Assembly: GCA_011389655.1 (NCBI GenBank)
Contig: JAABTX010000006.1
Location: forward strand, 1-43,694
DNA: 43,694 nt
Origin: Thioalkalivibrio sp.
GTDB taxonomy: Bacteria; Pseudomonadota; Gammaproteobacteria; Ectothiorhodospirales; Ectothiorhodospiraceae
Direction of reading: 5' to 3'
Shown: piece by piece, positions 14,867-20,548 of the stretch
How positions within the stretch are numbered: position 1 is the first letter of the stretch
How the letters are laid out: each line of letters opens with the position of its first letter
Notes under the pieces: generated by a model
Told to the model about the DNA's origin: nothing
Database searches by the model: none
The model's input: the letters and a program-made list of their open reading frames with translations, nothing else
Program-made: the position numbers and the translations under genes

Positions 14867-16444
14867 TCAATCTCCGGGGGTCTCGTGTCGAACGCACCCC
14901 TCGAGCGAGTCCCGCAGCATGCGGGTCAGCCGCTGCTGCCGCAGCACGGCCGCCGAGGCATCGCCCACGGCCTCGCCCAGGGCGTGCCGCAGCTGCTGCA
15001 GTTCATCCAGTGCTGCGCCCGCGCCGGATCCAGCCCCGGAATTGGAGCCACCGGCTGCGGCCGCAGGGGCGGGCAGCCGTCCGGCCAGCGCCTCCAGGGC
15101 CTGTGCTTGGTCGGCGATCCGGGTCAGCGCATCGACCACCCGGTGCTGCCAATCGGCGAGTTCGGTGGCCTGCGTGAGCGCGGCGCGCAGCCCCTCCGGG
15201 GTCTGTTCCGGGGCCGGGGCGCGCGGACCCTCCTCCCCGCGGTCTGCGGAGCCGGCGCCCCCCTCCAGCGCCTCGAAGGCCGCAGCCAGACGCGCCATCT
15301 CGGCCCGGCCGCGGCTGCGGATCGCGTCCAGGCCCGGCAGGTCACTGGACAGTGAAGGGGGCAGCTCCTCCTCGGCGGCCTGTGGCTCTTCCGACACCAC
15401 GGCCTCGGCGCGCAGCACGATGTCGACGAGCGGCGTGTCCGCGGGACCGCCCGCGCGCACCTCGTCGAGCAGCAGGGGCATCACCTCGATCGCGTCCGCG
15501 ATGACCTGCAGCGCCTCGTGGCCGGCGGGATGACCGCGATCGGCCAGCTCGACCGCCAGGGCCTCCATGACTCCGGCGAATTCGCCAAACCTCAGGGCGA
15601 CCGGGCGTGCCATGTTCCGCAGGATGCGCAGCCGGTCACCGAGGGCACGGGCCCCCTCCGCGGAAGCGCCCTCCTCCCGCCAGCGTTCGAAGGCCTTTCC
15701 GAGCCCCCGGATCGCGGTGGCCAGGACCTCGGGAAGGCGCGCCGGGGCCCGATCGAGATGCGGTGCGAGGACCGCGCGTTCCAGCAGGTCGCGGTCGTGG
15801 GCAAGCCGCGATGGCACGGGTCGGTCGCTCCCCCCGGCGCCCGGCGCCGCCGAAGCGGTTCCGACCGGTGGCTCCGGTTCCGCCACCGGGGGCGGTGTGT
15901 GCGGTCCGGTTTCCCTTCGGGGACTACCGCGCCCTCCGGATTCTTCGTCCGCCCGCGGCTCCGGCGCCACCGGGTGATCGGCCCCGGGCGCGCGTCCCCC
16001 GGCCTCGACAGTCTTGCCCGGTGACGACGCGGGGCCTTGGGCCGTCACGATCGCCGGCATCATCAGGGGCCCGGCGCCGCGCAGCGAACGCAGCTCGTTG
16101 ACCAGAGGCAGCAGCGGTTCGTCGGCCGGGGCCGATCCTGCGGGCTGCGCGGCCCCGGGAAGCCGTCGTGCCGCCCGCGCCAGCAGCCCCGAGGCCTCGG
16201 GGCTCCACGCCAGCTGACCCTCGTCCAGGGCCGTGGTCACGCGGAACAGCTCCTCGCACAACGGAATCGCGTCGTGCTGCCCGGCGGCCTCGAGCCCGGG
16301 GCGGAGACGACCGAGTCCCTCGCGAGCAAGGCCGAGACACTCCTCGCAGGCGTGATGCTCGACGTACCGCTGCAGTGCTCGCTCGACCCAGAAGAGCAGG
16401 TCCTCGGGCTCGGCCTCGTCCCAGGCTACGCTATCGCTTTCCAT
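14867..16444 (-). CDS. FimL/ChpA-N-terminal-like protein, candidate twitching-motility regulator
   Basis: This 525-aa protein is not recognised with certainty. It is all-helical in character: an N-terminal part (to ~residue 100) like the degenerate Hpt-type repeats of ChpA/FimL, with LEWVERALQRYVE-like spacing (here LLFWVERALQRYVEHH), a Pro/Ala/Gly/Glu-rich linker at roughly 110-200, then helical repeats with leucine periodicity to the end. No kinase ATP-binding motif, receiver or CheW domain is present, as in FimL. FimL in Pseudomonas supports cAMP signalling and type IV pilus function, and pilT/pilU lie 9 kb away. The start at 16444 is chosen because the upstream frame is Arg-rich shadow sequence. 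It converges on rsmE and diverges from gshB. The alternative is an unrelated scaffold protein. Confidence 0.45.
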   Translation of the reverse strand: MESDSVAWDEAEPEDLLFWVERALQRYVEHHACEECLGLAREGLGRLRPGLEAAGQHDAIPLCEELFRVTTALDEGQLAWSPEASGLLARAARRLPGAAQPAGSAPADEPLLPLVNELRSLRGAGPLMMPAIVTAQGPASSPGKTVEAGGRAPGADHPVAPEPRADEESGGRGSPRRETGPHTPPPVAEPEPPVGTASAAPGAGGSDRPVPSRLAHDRDLLERAVLAPHLDRAPARLPEVLATAIRGLGKAFERWREEGASAEGARALGDRLRILRNMARPVALRFGEFAGVMEALAVELADRGHPAGHEALQVIADAIEVMPLLLDEVRAGGPADTPLVDIVLRAEAVVSEEPQAAEEELPPSLSSDLPGLDAIRSRGRAEMARLAAAFEALEGGAGSADRGEEGPRAPAPEQTPEGLRAALTQATELADWQHRVVDALTRIADQAQALEALAGRLPAPAAAAGGSNSGAGSGAGAALDELQQLRHALGEAVGDASAAVLRQQRLTRMLRDSLEGCVRHETPGD

Positions 16445-16737
16445 TCGAATCCCTTGATGCTGCGTGCGGCCGCGCAGTCTGCGGACCGGGGAAGGACGCG
16501 GTCCAGCGCGGGGCCGAACGGGGCCGCGCCGGCAACGGTGGCCGAGCACCGGCGATCAGGCTGACCCGCGGCATCCCCGCGGCAACAGATCGACGGCAGA
16601 CGGCCACATCCCGCGCGTTCCGCCAGTCACGCTACTGTGCCACAGGGCTGCCCCCGGACCCAGGGGCGGCGGGCCGATGCCCTGCGGAAGGGGCCGATCG
16701 TGGCATACTGGAGGCCCCCGAAGCAGAGCCGCAGCAC

Positions 16738-17694
16738 ATGCCCGGAACGCTTGATATCGGCGTGGTGATGGACCCGATCCAGAGCATCAGGCCGACAAAG
16801 GATTCAACCTTCGCGATGCTGCTGGCGATGGGCCGGCGCGGGCATCGCGCGCACTGCATGGAACTCTCCGACCTCTGGGTCACGGATGGCATCGCCCACG
16901 CCCGCAGCCGGGAGGTGACGGTCCGCGACCAGGCAACGGACTTCCACGACCTGGCAGACGCGGTTGAGGGCACGATGGCGCGATTCGACATCGTGCTGAT
17001 GCGCAAGGATCCCCCGTTCGACCTCGAATACATCTACGCCACCTACATCCTGGAACTCGCCGAACAGGCCGGCGTGCACGTGGTCAATCGTCCGGCTTCG
17101 CTCCGCGATGCGAACGAAAAGGCCTTCACCGCCCATTTCCCGCAGTGCTGTCCCCCCACGCTGATCAGCCGGGACCGCGCGCGCATCCGCGCCTTCCTGA
17201 GACAGGAAGGCAGCATCGTGGTGAAGCCAATGGACGGCATGGGCGGCGCGTCGGTATTCCGCGTGGACCAGCACGATCCGAACGTCTCGGTGATCCTGGA
17301 GCTGATGACCGACTTCGACAGCCGGACCGTGATCGCCCAGCGCTTCCTGCCCGAGTACCGCGAGGGCGACAAGCGCATTCTGCTGATCCACGGCGAACCC
17401 GTCGATCATTCGCTGGCGCGCATCCCGGCCGAGGGAGAGTCGAGGGCCAATCTGGCGGCGGGCGGGCGCGGCGTCGCGGTTCCGCTGACCGAACGCGAAC
17501 ACTGGATCTGCAGGGAGCTGGCACCGGAGCTTCAGGCAAGGGGCCTCGACTTCGTGGGGCTCGATGTGATCGGCGGCTATCTCACCGAGATCAACGTGAC
17601 CAGCCCGACGGGGATCCGGGAACTCGATGCCGCCTGCGGCATCGACATCGCGGGACGACTGGTCGAACATCTGGAGAACGCCACCGCCCCATGA
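16738..17694 (+). CDS. gshB: Glutathione synthetase
   Basis: GshB joins gamma-glutamylcysteine and glycine with ATP to make glutathione. The 318-aa ATP-grasp protein shows IGVVMDPIQSIRPTKDST at the N-terminus, LMRKDPPFD, NRPASLRDANEK, the ATP-binding VVKPMDGMGG loop, RFLPEYREGDKRI and the C-terminal EINVTSPTGIREL. The ATG at 16738 fits the family N-terminus exactly; no strong ribosome-binding site is visible. The 293-base gap upstream, shared with the divergent FimL-like gene, holds no other gene. The stop overlaps the apbE start in an ATGA junction, linking gshB to the flavin-related genes. Confidence 0.96.
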   Translation: MPGTLDIGVVMDPIQSIRPTKDSTFAMLLAMGRRGHRAHCMELSDLWVTDGIAHARSREVTVRDQATDFHDLADAVEGTMARFDIVLMRKDPPFDLEYIYATYILELAEQAGVHVVNRPASLRDANEKAFTAHFPQCCPPTLISRDRARIRAFLRQEGSIVVKPMDGMGGASVFRVDQHDPNVSVILELMTDFDSRTVIAQRFLPEYREGDKRILLIHGEPVDHSLARIPAEGESRANLAAGGRGVAVPLTEREHWICRELAPELQARGLDFVGLDVIGGYLTEINVTSPTGIRELDAACGIDIAGRLVEHLENATAP

Positions 17695-18779
17695 ATCCGC
17701 GCCCGCTGTCACCGGACCTGCCCGCGATCCTGCGTCTGCTGTTACCGGTGTTCCTGTCCCTGCTCCTGAGCGCCTGCGGGCGGGACGGTCCCGACACCGA
17801 TCGGCTCACCTTCCAGGCCCTCGGCACCCTCGTGGACGTCACGCTCTACCCAGCGGATACCCACGATCTGACGGGAATCGAGTCCGCCCTGAGAGACGAA
17901 CTCGATGCCATGCACGCTGCCTGGCATGCCTGGGAACCGGGTCCTCTCGGCCGCACCAATCGGCTGCTCGAACAGGGCGTCGAGTTCGATGCCCCGGCGT
18001 CGGTGCTGCCGCTGATCGAACGGGCCCGGGAGCTCGAGCGCCTCACTGACGGACTGTTCAACCCGGCACTGGGCCGGCTCGTCTCCGCCTGGGGCTTTCA
18101 TCAGGACGAGCCTTCCGGACCGCCACCGAGCGAAGAGACCCTGGCGACCATGCTGGCCGACCCGCCGAGGGTCGCGGACATCGAACGCGACGGCATGCGC
18201 CTGCGCGGCGGCCACCCGGAACTGCAGCTCGACTTCGGGGGGCTTGCGAAGGGCCTTGCGGTCGCGCGCAGTCTGGAGCTGCTGACCGAACTCGGTGTGG
18301 AACACGCGATCGTGAACGCCGGCGGCGATCTGATGACCCTCGGGGAGCCCGCCGGCCGGCCCTGGCGCATCGGCCTGCGGGATCCCCGGGGCACCGGGGT
18401 GCTGGCGGCCATCTCGCTTGGCCCCGGCGAGGCCCTGTTCAGTTCCGGGGACTACGAACGCGGCTATGAATGGGAGAGTCGGCGGATCCATCACGTGATC
18501 GATCCCCGTACCGGAAGGCCCAGCCAGGGCATCGCATCCGCCACGGTGCTCCATGGCGATCCGGCCCTGGCCGATGCCGCGGCGACGACCCTGATGATCG
18601 CCGGCCCGCAGCAGTGGCCTGCGTACGCAAGGCGGCTCGGCGTCGACCACGCCCTGCTGGTGCTCGCCGATGGTTCGGTCGAGCTGACGCCGGCGATGGC
18701 GGGCCGCGTGGATTTCCGGCAGGACCTCGATTACCGTCTCCGGGAGTCCGGTCCCGGCACCGGCCCGGAGCCCCGCTGA
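17691..18779 (+). CDS. apbE: FAD:protein FMN transferase, lipoprotein
   Basis: ApbE takes FMN from FAD and attaches it to a Thr/Ser of periplasmic or membrane redox proteins. The 362-aa product has an N-terminal hydrophobic segment ending in the lipobox LLSAC (Cys29), so it is predicted to be membrane-anchored on the outer face. Family motifs are the early LGTLVDVTLY, DFGGLAKGLAVARS, VNAGGDLMTLG and the HHVIDPRTGRPS motif. Its start overlaps the gshB stop and its stop overlaps the next start (TGATG), so gshB, apbE and the NusG-domain-II gene form one coupled unit. No substrate protein with an FMN-binding domain is encoded in the window; Rnf or Nqr subunits elsewhere are the usual targets. Confidence 0.93.
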   Translation: MNPRPLSPDLPAILRLLLPVFLSLLLSACGRDGPDTDRLTFQALGTLVDVTLYPADTHDLTGIESALRDELDAMHAAWHAWEPGPLGRTNRLLEQGVEFDAPASVLPLIERARELERLTDGLFNPALGRLVSAWGFHQDEPSGPPPSEETLATMLADPPRVADIERDGMRLRGGHPELQLDFGGLAKGLAVARSLELLTELGVEHAIVNAGGDLMTLGEPAGRPWRIGLRDPRGTGVLAAISLGPGEALFSSGDYERGYEWESRRIHHVIDPRTGRPSQGIASATVLHGDPALADAAATTLMIAGPQQWPAYARRLGVDHALLVLADGSVELTPAMAGRVDFRQDLDYRLRESGPGTGPEPR

Positions 18780-19147
18780 TGCATGGCCTGCGGTGGGGTG
18801 ACGCACTGGTGGTGACGCTGGCCGTCGCCCTGGTGGGCACCGCCTTCGGGCTGGCCTATGCGCCGGGTGGCGGGGCCACGGAGCTGGTCGTGACCCAGGC
18901 CGGTGCGGCACCCCGGCACTATCCCCTGGACGCCGTCCGCACATTTGGCGTCCAGGGGGTTGCAGGCGTGACCACGATCCGGATCGAGCCGGGGCGGGCC
19001 CGCTGCGTCGACTCCCCGGGCACCCGGGACATCTGCGAGCGCGCGGGCTGGCTGGCACGCCCGGGGGACATGGCGGTGAGCCTGCCGAACCGTCTCGTGC
19101 TCCGGGTGCAGGGTCCGGGAGCAGAATTCGACAGCATGCACTTCTGA
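18779..19147 (+). CDS. NusG domain II-containing protein
   Basis: This 122-aa protein has one N-terminal membrane segment (about residues 8-27, ALVVTLAVALVGTAFGLAYA) and a small extracytoplasmic beta domain. The RIEPGRARCVDSPGTRDICERAGWLARPGD...LPNRLVLRV pattern, with two cysteines and a PNR motif near the end, matches the NusG domain II (DUF1312) family. The family name reflects a fold similarity; it is not a transcription factor. Genes of this family recur beside apbE and Gx-transporter genes, which suggests a role in flavinylation or in membrane electron transfer. It overlaps apbE by one base and precedes the Gx gene by 5 bases. Confidence 0.75.
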   Translation: MHGLRWGDALVVTLAVALVGTAFGLAYAPGGGATELVVTQAGAAPRHYPLDAVRTFGVQGVAGVTTIRIEPGRARCVDSPGTRDICERAGWLARPGDMAVSLPNRLVLRVQGPGAEFDSMHF

Positions 19148-19152
19148 CGATC

Positions 19153-19707
19153 ATGGCGATACGCGTCGCCACGGATTCCACCGCCTCGGATCACCGGATC
19201 GCCGCACTTGCGGCCCTGGCGATCGGCCTGCAGGTGATCGAGGCCGCAATCCCGAGCCCGGTACCCGGAATCAAGCCGGGTCTCGCCAACGTGATCACCC
19301 TGGTGGCGCTGGTCACGCTGGGCTGGCGGGCGGCGGTCGCGGTGACGCTGCTGCGCGTGGTGGGTTCCAGCCTGCTGCTGGGCACCCTGCTGAGCCCGGG
19401 GTTCTGGCTGTCGCTCGCCGGCGCACTGGCCGCGCTGCTGCTGCTCGCGCCGCTGTGTCGGCTGTATCCGGGTCACCTGAGCGCGGTGGGCCTCGCGGTT
19501 GCCGCAGCGCTGGCCCACACCGGGGGGCAGTTCCTGCTGGCCTGGACCCTGATCATCCCGCACCCGCAGTTGCCAGTGCTGCTGCCGCCATTGCTGCTCG
19601 CGGCGCTGATCGCCGGCGTGGTCACCGGTATACTGTCCAACTCCGTGCTCTCCGACCCGCGCATGCAACGCCATGTCCGCAACACTCCCACAACCGGAAC
19701 CCGATGA
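19153..19707 (+). CDS. Gx transporter family membrane protein (annotated elsewhere as heptaprenyl diphosphate synthase component I)
   Basis: The 184-aa protein is almost all membrane: about five hydrophobic segments after residue 15. The hallmark is IPSPVPGIKPGLANVITL near residues 33-50, typical of the Hpre_diP_synt_I / Gx family, which is related to ECF-transporter S components rather than to prenyltransferases. Its substrate is unknown. It follows the NusG-domain-II gene by 5 bases and its last 35 bases overlap the tonB start. Together with apbE this makes a compact module that I infer serves extracytoplasmic flavin attachment or redox chemistry; the family assignment is firmer than the function. 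Confidence 0.75.
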   Translation: MAIRVATDSTASDHRIAALAALAIGLQVIEAAIPSPVPGIKPGLANVITLVALVTLGWRAAVAVTLLRVVGSSLLLGTLLSPGFWLSLAGALAALLLLAPLCRLYPGHLSAVGLAVAAALAHTGGQFLLAWTLIIPHPQLPVLLPPLLLAALIAGVVTGILSNSVLSDPRMQRHVRNTPTTGTR

Positions 19708-20548
19708 CGGCGGCGGCCTTGGCCTGACGCTGTTCGTGGCGCTCGTCCTGCACGCGCTGGTGATCCTGGGCGTCGGGTTCGAGATCTTCCCGGGAGAACG
19801 ACCCGAGCAGGTCACGCTGGACGTGACCTGGGTGGAGGTCCCGTCGTCGGAACCGGAGAATGCCGACCACATTGCCGTGCAGGCCCAGGCCGGGAGCGGT
19901 GAGGCCGAAGACAGCCAGGTGGCCCGCAGCCCGGAGCCGCCGATGGAGGAGACGGCCCCGTCCGAGCCACCGAAGGCCGCGCCATCCGCGGTCGATGCGG
20001 TCCCGGCGGCGGACCCGGAACCGGTCACCGCGTCCGAGCCGGCGCCCGATACCGCGCCGCGCGACCCCGCGCCCGCAGAGACTGCCGACGCTCCGGAGAC
20101 CCCGTCCGCGGCCACCATCCTGGCCCGCGGGCGGGAAATGGCCCGCTCGATGCCCCACGAGACCGGGCAGGAATTGCGTTCGCAGGCCTCCAGGACCCTG
20201 TATATCGACACCCTCGCCGCCCGCACCGCGCCGGAGGCGGCCTACCTGGAGGCCTGGATACGCAAGGTCGAGCGCGTCGGCAACCTGAATTACCCGGACG
20301 AGGCCCGCCGGCGCGAACTGTCCGGCTCCCTGGTGCTGTCGGTGCGTCTGGACGCGGAAGGTCGGGTGCAGGACATCGCCATCGCCCAGAGTTCCGGGGA
20401 ACCGGTGCTGGACCAGTCCGCCATCCGCATCGTGGAACTGGCCGCCCCCTTCGCCCCGTTCACCGACAGCATGCGCGAGCAATATGATCACCTGGTGATC
20501 ACCCGCACCTGGGCCTTCCGCCGCGATCGCGTGGAACGTGCCCGCTGA
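19673..20548 (+). CDS. tonB: TonB-family energy-transducing protein
   Basis: TonB proteins couple the inner-membrane proton gradient to outer-membrane receptors. The 291-aa protein has an N-terminal membrane anchor (LTLFVALVLHALVILGVGF), a long Pro/Glu/Ala-rich spacer (about 60-150) and a C-terminal TonB domain with YLEAWIRKVERVGNLNYP and GSLVLSVRLDAEGRV. No exbB or exbD lies nearby. The position before yqgE-ruvX-pyrR matches the Pseudomonas gene called tonB3, which is linked to twitching motility; this is synteny, not proof. It overlaps the Gx gene by 35 bases, which suggests either coupling or a later start. Confidence 0.88.
   Translation: MSATLPQPEPDDGGGLGLTLFVALVLHALVILGVGFEIFPGERPEQVTLDVTWVEVPSSEPENADHIAVQAQAGSGEAEDSQVARSPEPPMEETAPSEPPKAAPSAVDAVPAADPEPVTASEPAPDTAPRDPAPAETADAPETPSAATILARGREMARSMPHETGQELRSQASRTLYIDTLAARTAPEAAYLEAWIRKVERVGNLNYPDEARRRELSGSLVLSVRLDAEGRVQDIAIAQSSGEPVLDQSAIRIVELAAPFAPFTDSMREQYDHLVITRTWAFRRDRVERAR

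What the first reader, a model, noticed from the sequence alone, without database searches (positions are those of the whole stretch)
17691..19707. apbE / NusG-domain-II / Gx-transporter trio inserted between gshB and tonB
In pseudomonads gshB is next to tonB. Here three overlapping or nearly touching genes lie between them: a lipoprotein flavin transferase, a membrane-anchored NusG-II protein and a Gx family membrane protein. Recurrent pairing of these families suggests a module for attaching flavin to exported redox proteins, with the Gx protein perhaps moving a flavin or quinone-related compound. No substrate protein is encoded nearby, so the target is open.
Basis: inference. Interest (0 to 1): 0.55.

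Follow-up and report, generated by a model that had tools for sequence, protein, structure and literature searches.

The report
Flavin-supply genes with a remote partner
Three adjacent genes look like a kit that carries a vitamin-B2 cofactor out of the cell and bolts it onto an electron-transfer complex, and a fourth membrane gene elsewhere in the genome comes and goes with them, suggesting an unusual exporter that may work without the usual ATP-burning engine.

Summary
The trio is real and at the stated coordinates: apbE (17691-18779), a NusG-domain-II protein = EetA (18779-19147) and a 'Gx' protein = EetB, PF07456 (19153-19707). The core reading is known: in Listeria EetB is an ECF-S-like, FAD-binding protein needed to export FAD to the ApbE-like FmnB (PMC9973259). 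It is not peculiar to this genome: 73 of 274 sampled Gammaproteobacteria have PF07456, mostly as gshB-apbE-eetA-eetB-tonB. The target is not open: the genome's only FMN_bind and NqrB/RnfD proteins are RnfG and RnfD. New here: a divergent EcfT-fold protein encoded elsewhere, after fimV, tracks eetB: in 69 of 73 eetB genomes and 8 of 201 others, 5 of these weak. On a tree it changes with eetB in 8 of 10 independent pairs, never against. The family mostly lacks the Ala-Arg-Gly signatures by which T units dock ATPases, though this genome's copy has VRG triplets, while EetB keeps an S-unit T-docking motif. I propose a split, possibly ATPase-free, ECF-type FAD exporter feeding ApbE. Partnership, direction and energy source are inferred.

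The parts
17691..18779 (+). apbE: FAD:protein FMN transferase, lipoprotein (Cys29 of a lipobox-like stretch)
   Evidence: PF02424 226 bits; only ApbE of the genome; Cys29 in 84 of 92 aligned rows
18779..19147 (+). eetA: membrane-anchored NusG-domain-II protein
   Evidence: PF07009 64.9 bits; occurs in 72 of the 73 PF07456 genomes and in no other of 274
19153..19707 (+). eetB: 'Gx'/PF07456 membrane protein, ECF-S-type, proposed FAD exporter subunit
   Evidence: PF07456 130.1 bits; AXXXA at Ala17/Ala21, kept in 32 of 34 rows; function from Listeria EetB (PMC9973259)
16738..17694 (+). gshB (context, upstream flank of the slot)
   Evidence: PF02955 240.6 bits
19673..20548 (+). tonB-family gene (context, downstream flank of the slot)
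   Evidence: PF03544 60 bits
20538..24523 (+). yqgE/algH, yqgF/ruvX, pyrR-like, pyrB, pyrC-like genes (context: conserved downstream neighbours)
   Evidence: Pfam AlgH-like, RuvX, Pribosyltran, OTCace, Amidohydro_1; same order in other genomes

Best explanation
The trio is an FAD-supply and flavinylation module. EetB, an ECF-S-type membrane subunit, carries FAD from the cytosol to the periplasm; the lipoprotein ApbE splits it and attaches FMN to RnfG and RnfD (in Rnf-less relatives to an FMN_bind protein beside a PepSY_TM protein); EetA is a constant, probably accessory partner. EetB works with a dedicated EcfT-fold scaffold encoded far away, directly after fimV and often before truA (here contig C348, locus L168 about 144-860, before truA). 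This T-like family has largely lost the signatures that dock ECF ATPases, so the pair may run without them: FAD is an anion, so its export runs down the membrane potential, and ApbE consumes it on the far side. Shown by computation: gene identities, synteny, the candidate targets, co-occurrence of T-like and EetB, EcfT fold, weakened signatures. Inferred: physical S-T partnership, substrate and direction in this organism, energy source.
For: Family matches. Conserved gene order in 56 of 74 loci. One ApbE, one FMN_bind, one RnfD in the genome, the latter two in an rnf operon. Listeria EetB binds FAD and is needed for PplA flavinylation unless FAD is added (PMC9973259). T-like in 69 of 73 eetB genomes versus 8 of 201 others; among 172 genomes with ApbE and RnfD/NqrB 64 have both, 4 eetB only, 0 T-like only, 104 neither. 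Independent pairs on a 107-genome tree: 8 same way, 0 opposite, 2 no difference, p about 0.008; controls ApbE 1.2 same/0 opposite/8.8 none, RnfD 1.9/1.0/7.1. T-like profile hits only EcfT in the PDB; its model matches EcfT/CbiQ at Z 12.3-14.7, next row 4.5. AXXXA kept in EetB, 32 of 34.
Against: No experiment in any gammaproteobacterium. T-like is unlinked to eetB in most genomes; proximity to eetA, rnfG or rnfD seen in three only (G076, G032, G217). In Listeria the exporter needs EcfA/A' ATPases. The genome's own T-like protein is divergent (E 1.8e-20, no Pfam hit), its fimV side is cut by the contig start, and it carries two VRG triplets that could be a signature. Ordinary ABC ATPases are plentiful and one could be recruited. 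G197 (99% complete) has eetB and no T-like match.
Confidence: 0.68

Rival explanations
1. Same EetB/T-like partnership, but an ordinary ABC ATPase encoded elsewhere is recruited, so it is a normal, only dispersed, ATP-driven ECF-type exporter.
For: Listeria precedent with shared EcfA/A' (PMC9973259). Every one of 73 eetB genomes has ABC ATPases matching TIGR04520 below cut-off. VRG triplets in the genome's own T-like protein; a conserved (R/Q)-A-(E/D) can be aligned to the second signature.
Against: TIGR04520 over cut-off in 0 of 73. Only 5 of 38 T-like proteins have any xRG triplet after residue 130, 1 of 38 has [AGS]RG, against 9 of 11 canonical CbiQ.
Confidence: 0.33
2. EetB acts alone, like solitary BioY or BtuM, and the T-like protein is co-inherited for another reason.
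For: Some S components transport without an ECF module (PMC11109136, passages). T-like is unlinked in most genomes.
Against: Tight co-occurrence, repeated on the tree; EcfT fold; AXXXA kept.
Confidence: 0.12
3. The system imports flavin (salvage) rather than exporting it.
For: Most characterised ECF transporters import; direction cannot be read from sequence.
Against: Linked to a periplasmic FAD consumer; Listeria EetB did not replace RibU in flavin uptake.
Confidence: 0.07
4. The Pfam name is right and PF07456 works in prenyl diphosphate or quinone metabolism, with chance company.
For: Only the Pfam description.
Against: Constant company of eetA and apbE; Listeria genetics (PMC9973259).
Confidence: 0.03

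Closest known systems
Listeria monocytogenes FAD exporter EetB-FmnA-EcfA-EcfA' with FmnB (ApbE) and EetA (PMC9973259)
   Same: Same three families together (ApbE, NusG_II, PF07456); PF07456 as ECF-S; an ECF-T-type partner; a periplasmic-side flavin transferase as consumer.
   Different: Here the T-type partner is a divergent family encoded apart after fimV, mostly without ATPase-docking signatures, and no EcfA passes its cut-off; the target is Rnf, not PplA.
eetB clusters with Rnf in Clostridia (PMC9973259, 572 genomes)
   Same: eetB serving Rnf flavinylation.
   Different: There eetB lies with rnf genes; here the trio sits between gshB and tonB and rnf is on another contig.
Canonical ECF T components (EcfT, CbiQ, BioN)
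   Same: Fold over nearly the whole length (Z up to 14.7) and weak profile similarity.
   Different: Ala-Arg-Gly signatures mostly missing; no ATPase gene seen beside it in the loci read.
Solitary S components (BioY, BtuM)
   Same: S-fold transporters said to work without an ECF module (PMC11109136, passages).
   Different: Those take up vitamins; here a T-like protein accompanies the S component.

Membership tests
ApbE FAD:protein FMN transferase | ApbE domain over the family cut-off | tested here: met
   PF02424 226 bits, cut-off 25.6
ApbE FAD:protein FMN transferase | FMN transfer to a target protein | not testable with these tools
   Candidate targets RnfG and RnfD found
EetB / PF07456 FAD-export S subunit | PF07456 domain | tested here: met
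   130.1 bits, cut-off 30
EetB / PF07456 FAD-export S subunit | ECF-S fold | tested here: inconclusive
   Single-sequence model too poor, pLDDT 60; profile finds nothing in the PDB
EetB / PF07456 FAD-export S subunit | AXXXA T-docking motif in helix 1 | tested here: met
   Ala17 and Ala21; 32 of 34 rows; that this stretch is helix 1 is inferred
EetB / PF07456 FAD-export S subunit | FAD binding and export | not testable with these tools
   Only from Listeria (PMC9973259)
ECF T component (the fimV-linked protein) | EcfT fold | tested here: met
   Model of relative L225 (pLDDT 87.9), Z 12.3-14.7 to 12 EcfT/CbiQ chains, next 4.5; the genome's own copy was not modelled
ECF T component (the fimV-linked protein) | Two Ala-Arg-Gly-type signatures that dock the ATPases | tested here: not met
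   [AGS]RG after residue 130 in 1 of 38, any xRG in 5 of 38, against [AGS]RG in 9 of 11 canonical CbiQ. Looser [AGS][RK][GAS] in 15 of 38 and 11 of 11. G000's own copy has VRG twice
Complete ECF transporter | Dedicated EcfA-type ATPase | tested here: inconclusive
   TIGR04520 over cut-off in 0 of 73 eetB genomes, in 3 of 14 controls; generic ABC ATPases present; TIGR04521 not tested

The most novel reading that the evidence does not exclude
A two-subunit, ATPase-free ECF-derived exporter: an S component (EetB) and a T scaffold that has shed its ATPase-docking signatures move FAD outward, driven by the membrane potential and by ApbE trapping the flavin. It would be a passive or secondary offshoot of a primary ABC transporter that supplies cofactor to periplasmic flavoproteins in about a quarter of the sampled Gammaproteobacteria.
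Probability: 0.38. Interest if true: 0.78.

Novelty: new variant of a known kind. Interest (0 to 1): 0.6.

Why it matters
As far as I know (recalled), how FAD reaches periplasmic ApbE is unexplained in most Gram-negative bacteria. This turns the trio into a testable four-gene system, names the likely flavinylated target, gives a role to an unannotated membrane gene after fimV, and points to an ECF-type transporter that may have lost its ATPase.

Tried and rejected
Canonical ECF-T as partner: PF02361 has no match at E <= 0.001 in G000, G223 or G106, and only 11 of 73 eetB genomes have a strong CbiQ (over 90 bits). The weaker PF02361 matches whose loci I read proved to be the fimV-linked family.

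Genes between eetA and eetB in five loci: by my reading of the frames (no family search) an IS110-like transposase, a rhodanese-like and a CheW/response-regulator-like protein and others; nothing recurrent.

EetB model from one sequence: too poor to use. EetB profile against the PDB: no match. EetA profile: five PDB sequences, hypothetical or uncharacterised proteins and a NusG; no mechanism from it.

Exceptions to the co-occurrence. T-like without eetB: G005, G164, G259 strong; in these the best GSH-S_ATP match is weak (E 6.7e-17, 1.0e-15, 1.5e-23) and no ApbE was found, so the gshB locus is probably missing from the assemblies, which is not proven. Five more (G060, G157, G190, G224, G268) are weak, E 6e-5 to 3e-7; four of the five loci were read and none has fimV or truA beside it. 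eetB without T-like: G099 (73% complete), G215 (77%), G227 (weak eetB, no eetA), G197 (99%, unexplained).

Limits. The T-like profile was built from eetB genomes, so very divergent relatives elsewhere could be missed, and at most 10 candidates per genome were scored. The 40 eetB-less loci were my choice out of 201 (8 because gshB and apbE looked adjacent), so 21/14 is no class frequency. The tree used the quick method on four proteins. Of 41 loci I used 37 and dropped 4 partial ones.

In print? Searches; for eetB together with an ECF-T only the Listeria paper came up. Its supplementary list of eetB genomes was not read and subscription journals are not held, so earlier notice of the gammaproteobacterial trio is possible; I treat the trio as covered by that survey. 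Two other papers were only searched for terms with none or few hits (PMC8238504, PMC10979944).

Full report
What is there. The window (G000:C310; genome scored 99.63% complete) holds on the + strand gshB 16738-17694, apbE 17691-18779, a 122-residue NusG-domain-II protein 18779-19147, a 184-residue PF07456 protein 19153-19707 and a tonB-family gene 19673-20548. Pfam: PF02955 240.6 bits, PF02424 226, PF07009 64.9, PF07456 130.1, PF03544 60. NCBIfam has no model over cut-off for apbE (88 of 498 bits) and none at all for the next two.

How common it is. In 274 genomes drawn evenly from the class (this one included), PF07456 is found in 73 and NusG_II in 72, all among the 73; the odd one, G227, has a weak PF07456 match. 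ApbE is found in 196 and RnfD/NqrB (PF03116) in 180. Of 74 eetB loci from the other 72 genomes, 56 have gshB-apbE-eetA-eetB-tonB in order, four of these (L048, L060, L104, L108) with 1.2-6.9 kb of other genes between eetA and eetB; 6 show only eetB-tonB, 4 lack tonB, 2 lack gshB, 2 show eetA-eetB-tonB, 2 lack eetA, 1 has eetB alone and 1 has tonB before eetB. Of 40 eetB-less gshB loci that I chose, 21 read gshB-apbE-tonB, 14 gshB-tonB, 2 gshB-apbE and 3 gshB alone. The slot thus has three main states; the data do not tell gain from loss.

The target. G000 has one ApbE, one FMN_bind protein and one NQR2/RnfD protein. The latter two are RnfG and RnfD in an operon whose other genes match Rnf-Nqr, FeS/Fer4, RnfC_N and Rnf-Nqr, followed by a HhH-GPD (nth-like) gene. 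Other kinds of ApbE target were not searched for. Of the 73 eetB genomes 71 have an FMN_bind protein and 68 have RnfD/NqrB. In four of the five without RnfD/NqrB (G028, G057, G174, G194) the FMN_bind gene is followed by a PepSY_TM gene; the fifth, G076, has neither family. The module seems to supply whatever flavinylated protein is present, most often Rnf.

What the Gx protein does. In Listeria, EetB (PF07456) pulled down FAD, resembles ECF-S subunits, and with the ECF-T subunit FmnA and ATPases EcfA/A' is required for PplA flavinylation unless FAD is added; eetB co-localises with eetA in 3,328 and with apbE in 2,169 of 4,214 eetB genomes; a delta-eetA strain had normal EET (PMC9973259; parts 1-3 of 6 and passages read). 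The trio is thus a known association.

The missing partner. G000 has no PF02361 (ECF-T) match. Weak PF02361 matches in other eetB genomes proved to be one family of about 225-residue membrane proteins. In 42 genomes where a strong member was read, fimV comes directly before it in 40 (not in G000, where the contig starts, nor in G101) and truA directly after it in 26 (fimV and truA by Pfam). A profile of it finds 77 of 274 genomes: 69 of the 73 with eetB and 8 of the 201 without (Fisher p 2e-50; 3 of 201 without five weak matches). G000 has it at C348:174-809, E 1.8e-20, before truA and a PRAI (trpF) gene. Among the 172 genomes with both ApbE and RnfD/NqrB, 64 have eetB and T-like, 4 eetB only, 0 T-like only, 104 neither. 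On a tree of 107 genomes (67 with eetB) eetB changes at least 26 times and T-like 27 times; over ten independent, well-supported pairs that differ in eetB, T-like differs the same way in 8, the opposite way in 0, not at all in 2 (median p 0.008). Controls: ApbE 1.2 same, 0 opposite, 8.8 no difference; RnfD 1.9, 1.0, 7.1. Physical hints in three genomes: in G076 T-like is 2.4 kb from eetA-apbE-gshB, in G032 it is followed by a redoxin-like gene and then an FMN_bind gene, in G217 it is about 7 kb from rnfD-rnfG.

What the T-like protein is. Its profile matches three distinct PDB sequences up to E 1, all EcfT (best 6.2e-7). A model of relative L225 (pLDDT 87.9, pTM 0.77) matches EcfT/CbiQ chains in the first 12 rows (Z 12.3-14.7), then falls to 4.5 (Foldseek best E 9.3e-7). 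[quoted passage not shown] Eleven canonical CbiQ from the same genomes carry them (first site ARG 8, VRG 1, SRG 1, VRC 1; second SKG 10, CRG 1). Of 38 T-like proteins, 1 has [AGS]RG after residue 130 (9 of 11 canonical), 5 have any xRG, and 37 have a gap at the second site. Against a clean loss: the looser pattern [AGS][RK][GAS] occurs in 15 of 38 (11 of 11 canonical); another alignment sets a conserved (R/Q)-A-(E/D) opposite the second site; and the copy of this genome has two VRG triplets. ECF_ATPase_1 is over its cut-off in 0 of 73 eetB genomes against 3 of 14 controls; ordinary ABC ATPases are plentiful, and TIGR04521 was not tested. EetB keeps AXXXA in 32 of 34 rows; its role in S-T contact is from PMC11109136 (passages).

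Mechanism. Shown by computation: identities, synteny, candidate targets, co-occurrence, fold, weakened signatures. Inferred: EetB and T-like form an FAD exporter; ApbE uses the FAD to modify RnfG and RnfD; the pair may run without ATPase because FAD is anionic and is consumed outside. A recruited ATPase is the main rival.

EetA. Three cysteines (SPC-x4-C-x14-CLPN) are Cys in 62, 70 and 68 of 72 rows; the window's protein keeps only the middle one. An intact triad is therefore no strict requirement for keeping the trio; EetA's role stays open.

Verdict.

Noticed in passing
window 18779-19147: This EetA has lost two of the three cysteines conserved in the family (Gly81, Ser101) and has Cys76 where 61 of 72 rows have Phe; locus L047 (G079) shows the same pattern.
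   Followed up: partly
L134 8695-10148, L135 8674-10016, L136 4764-6042, L137 8541-9858: eetB genomes without Rnf/Nqr have an FMN_bind gene followed by a PepSY_TM gene, with a porin-like gene (by reading) upstream: a different flavinylated system.
   Followed up: partly
L048 2274-3317: An IS110-like transposase frame (by reading) lies between eetA and eetB in G036, so the pair tolerates separation.
   Followed up: no
window 14867-16549 (- strand): A 560-residue open frame upstream of gshB with no Pfam match at E <= 0.001; gshB lies next to a pilus-chemotaxis cluster in Pseudomonas (recalled).
   Followed up: no
L175 6960-8924: In G032 the T-like gene is followed by a redoxin-like gene and an FMN_bind gene on one strand, a possible operon.
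   Followed up: partly
L263, L264, L265: Distant partial T-like matches occur in records titled Gallionellaceae and Methylotenera; whether these genomes hold eetB was not tested.
   Followed up: no
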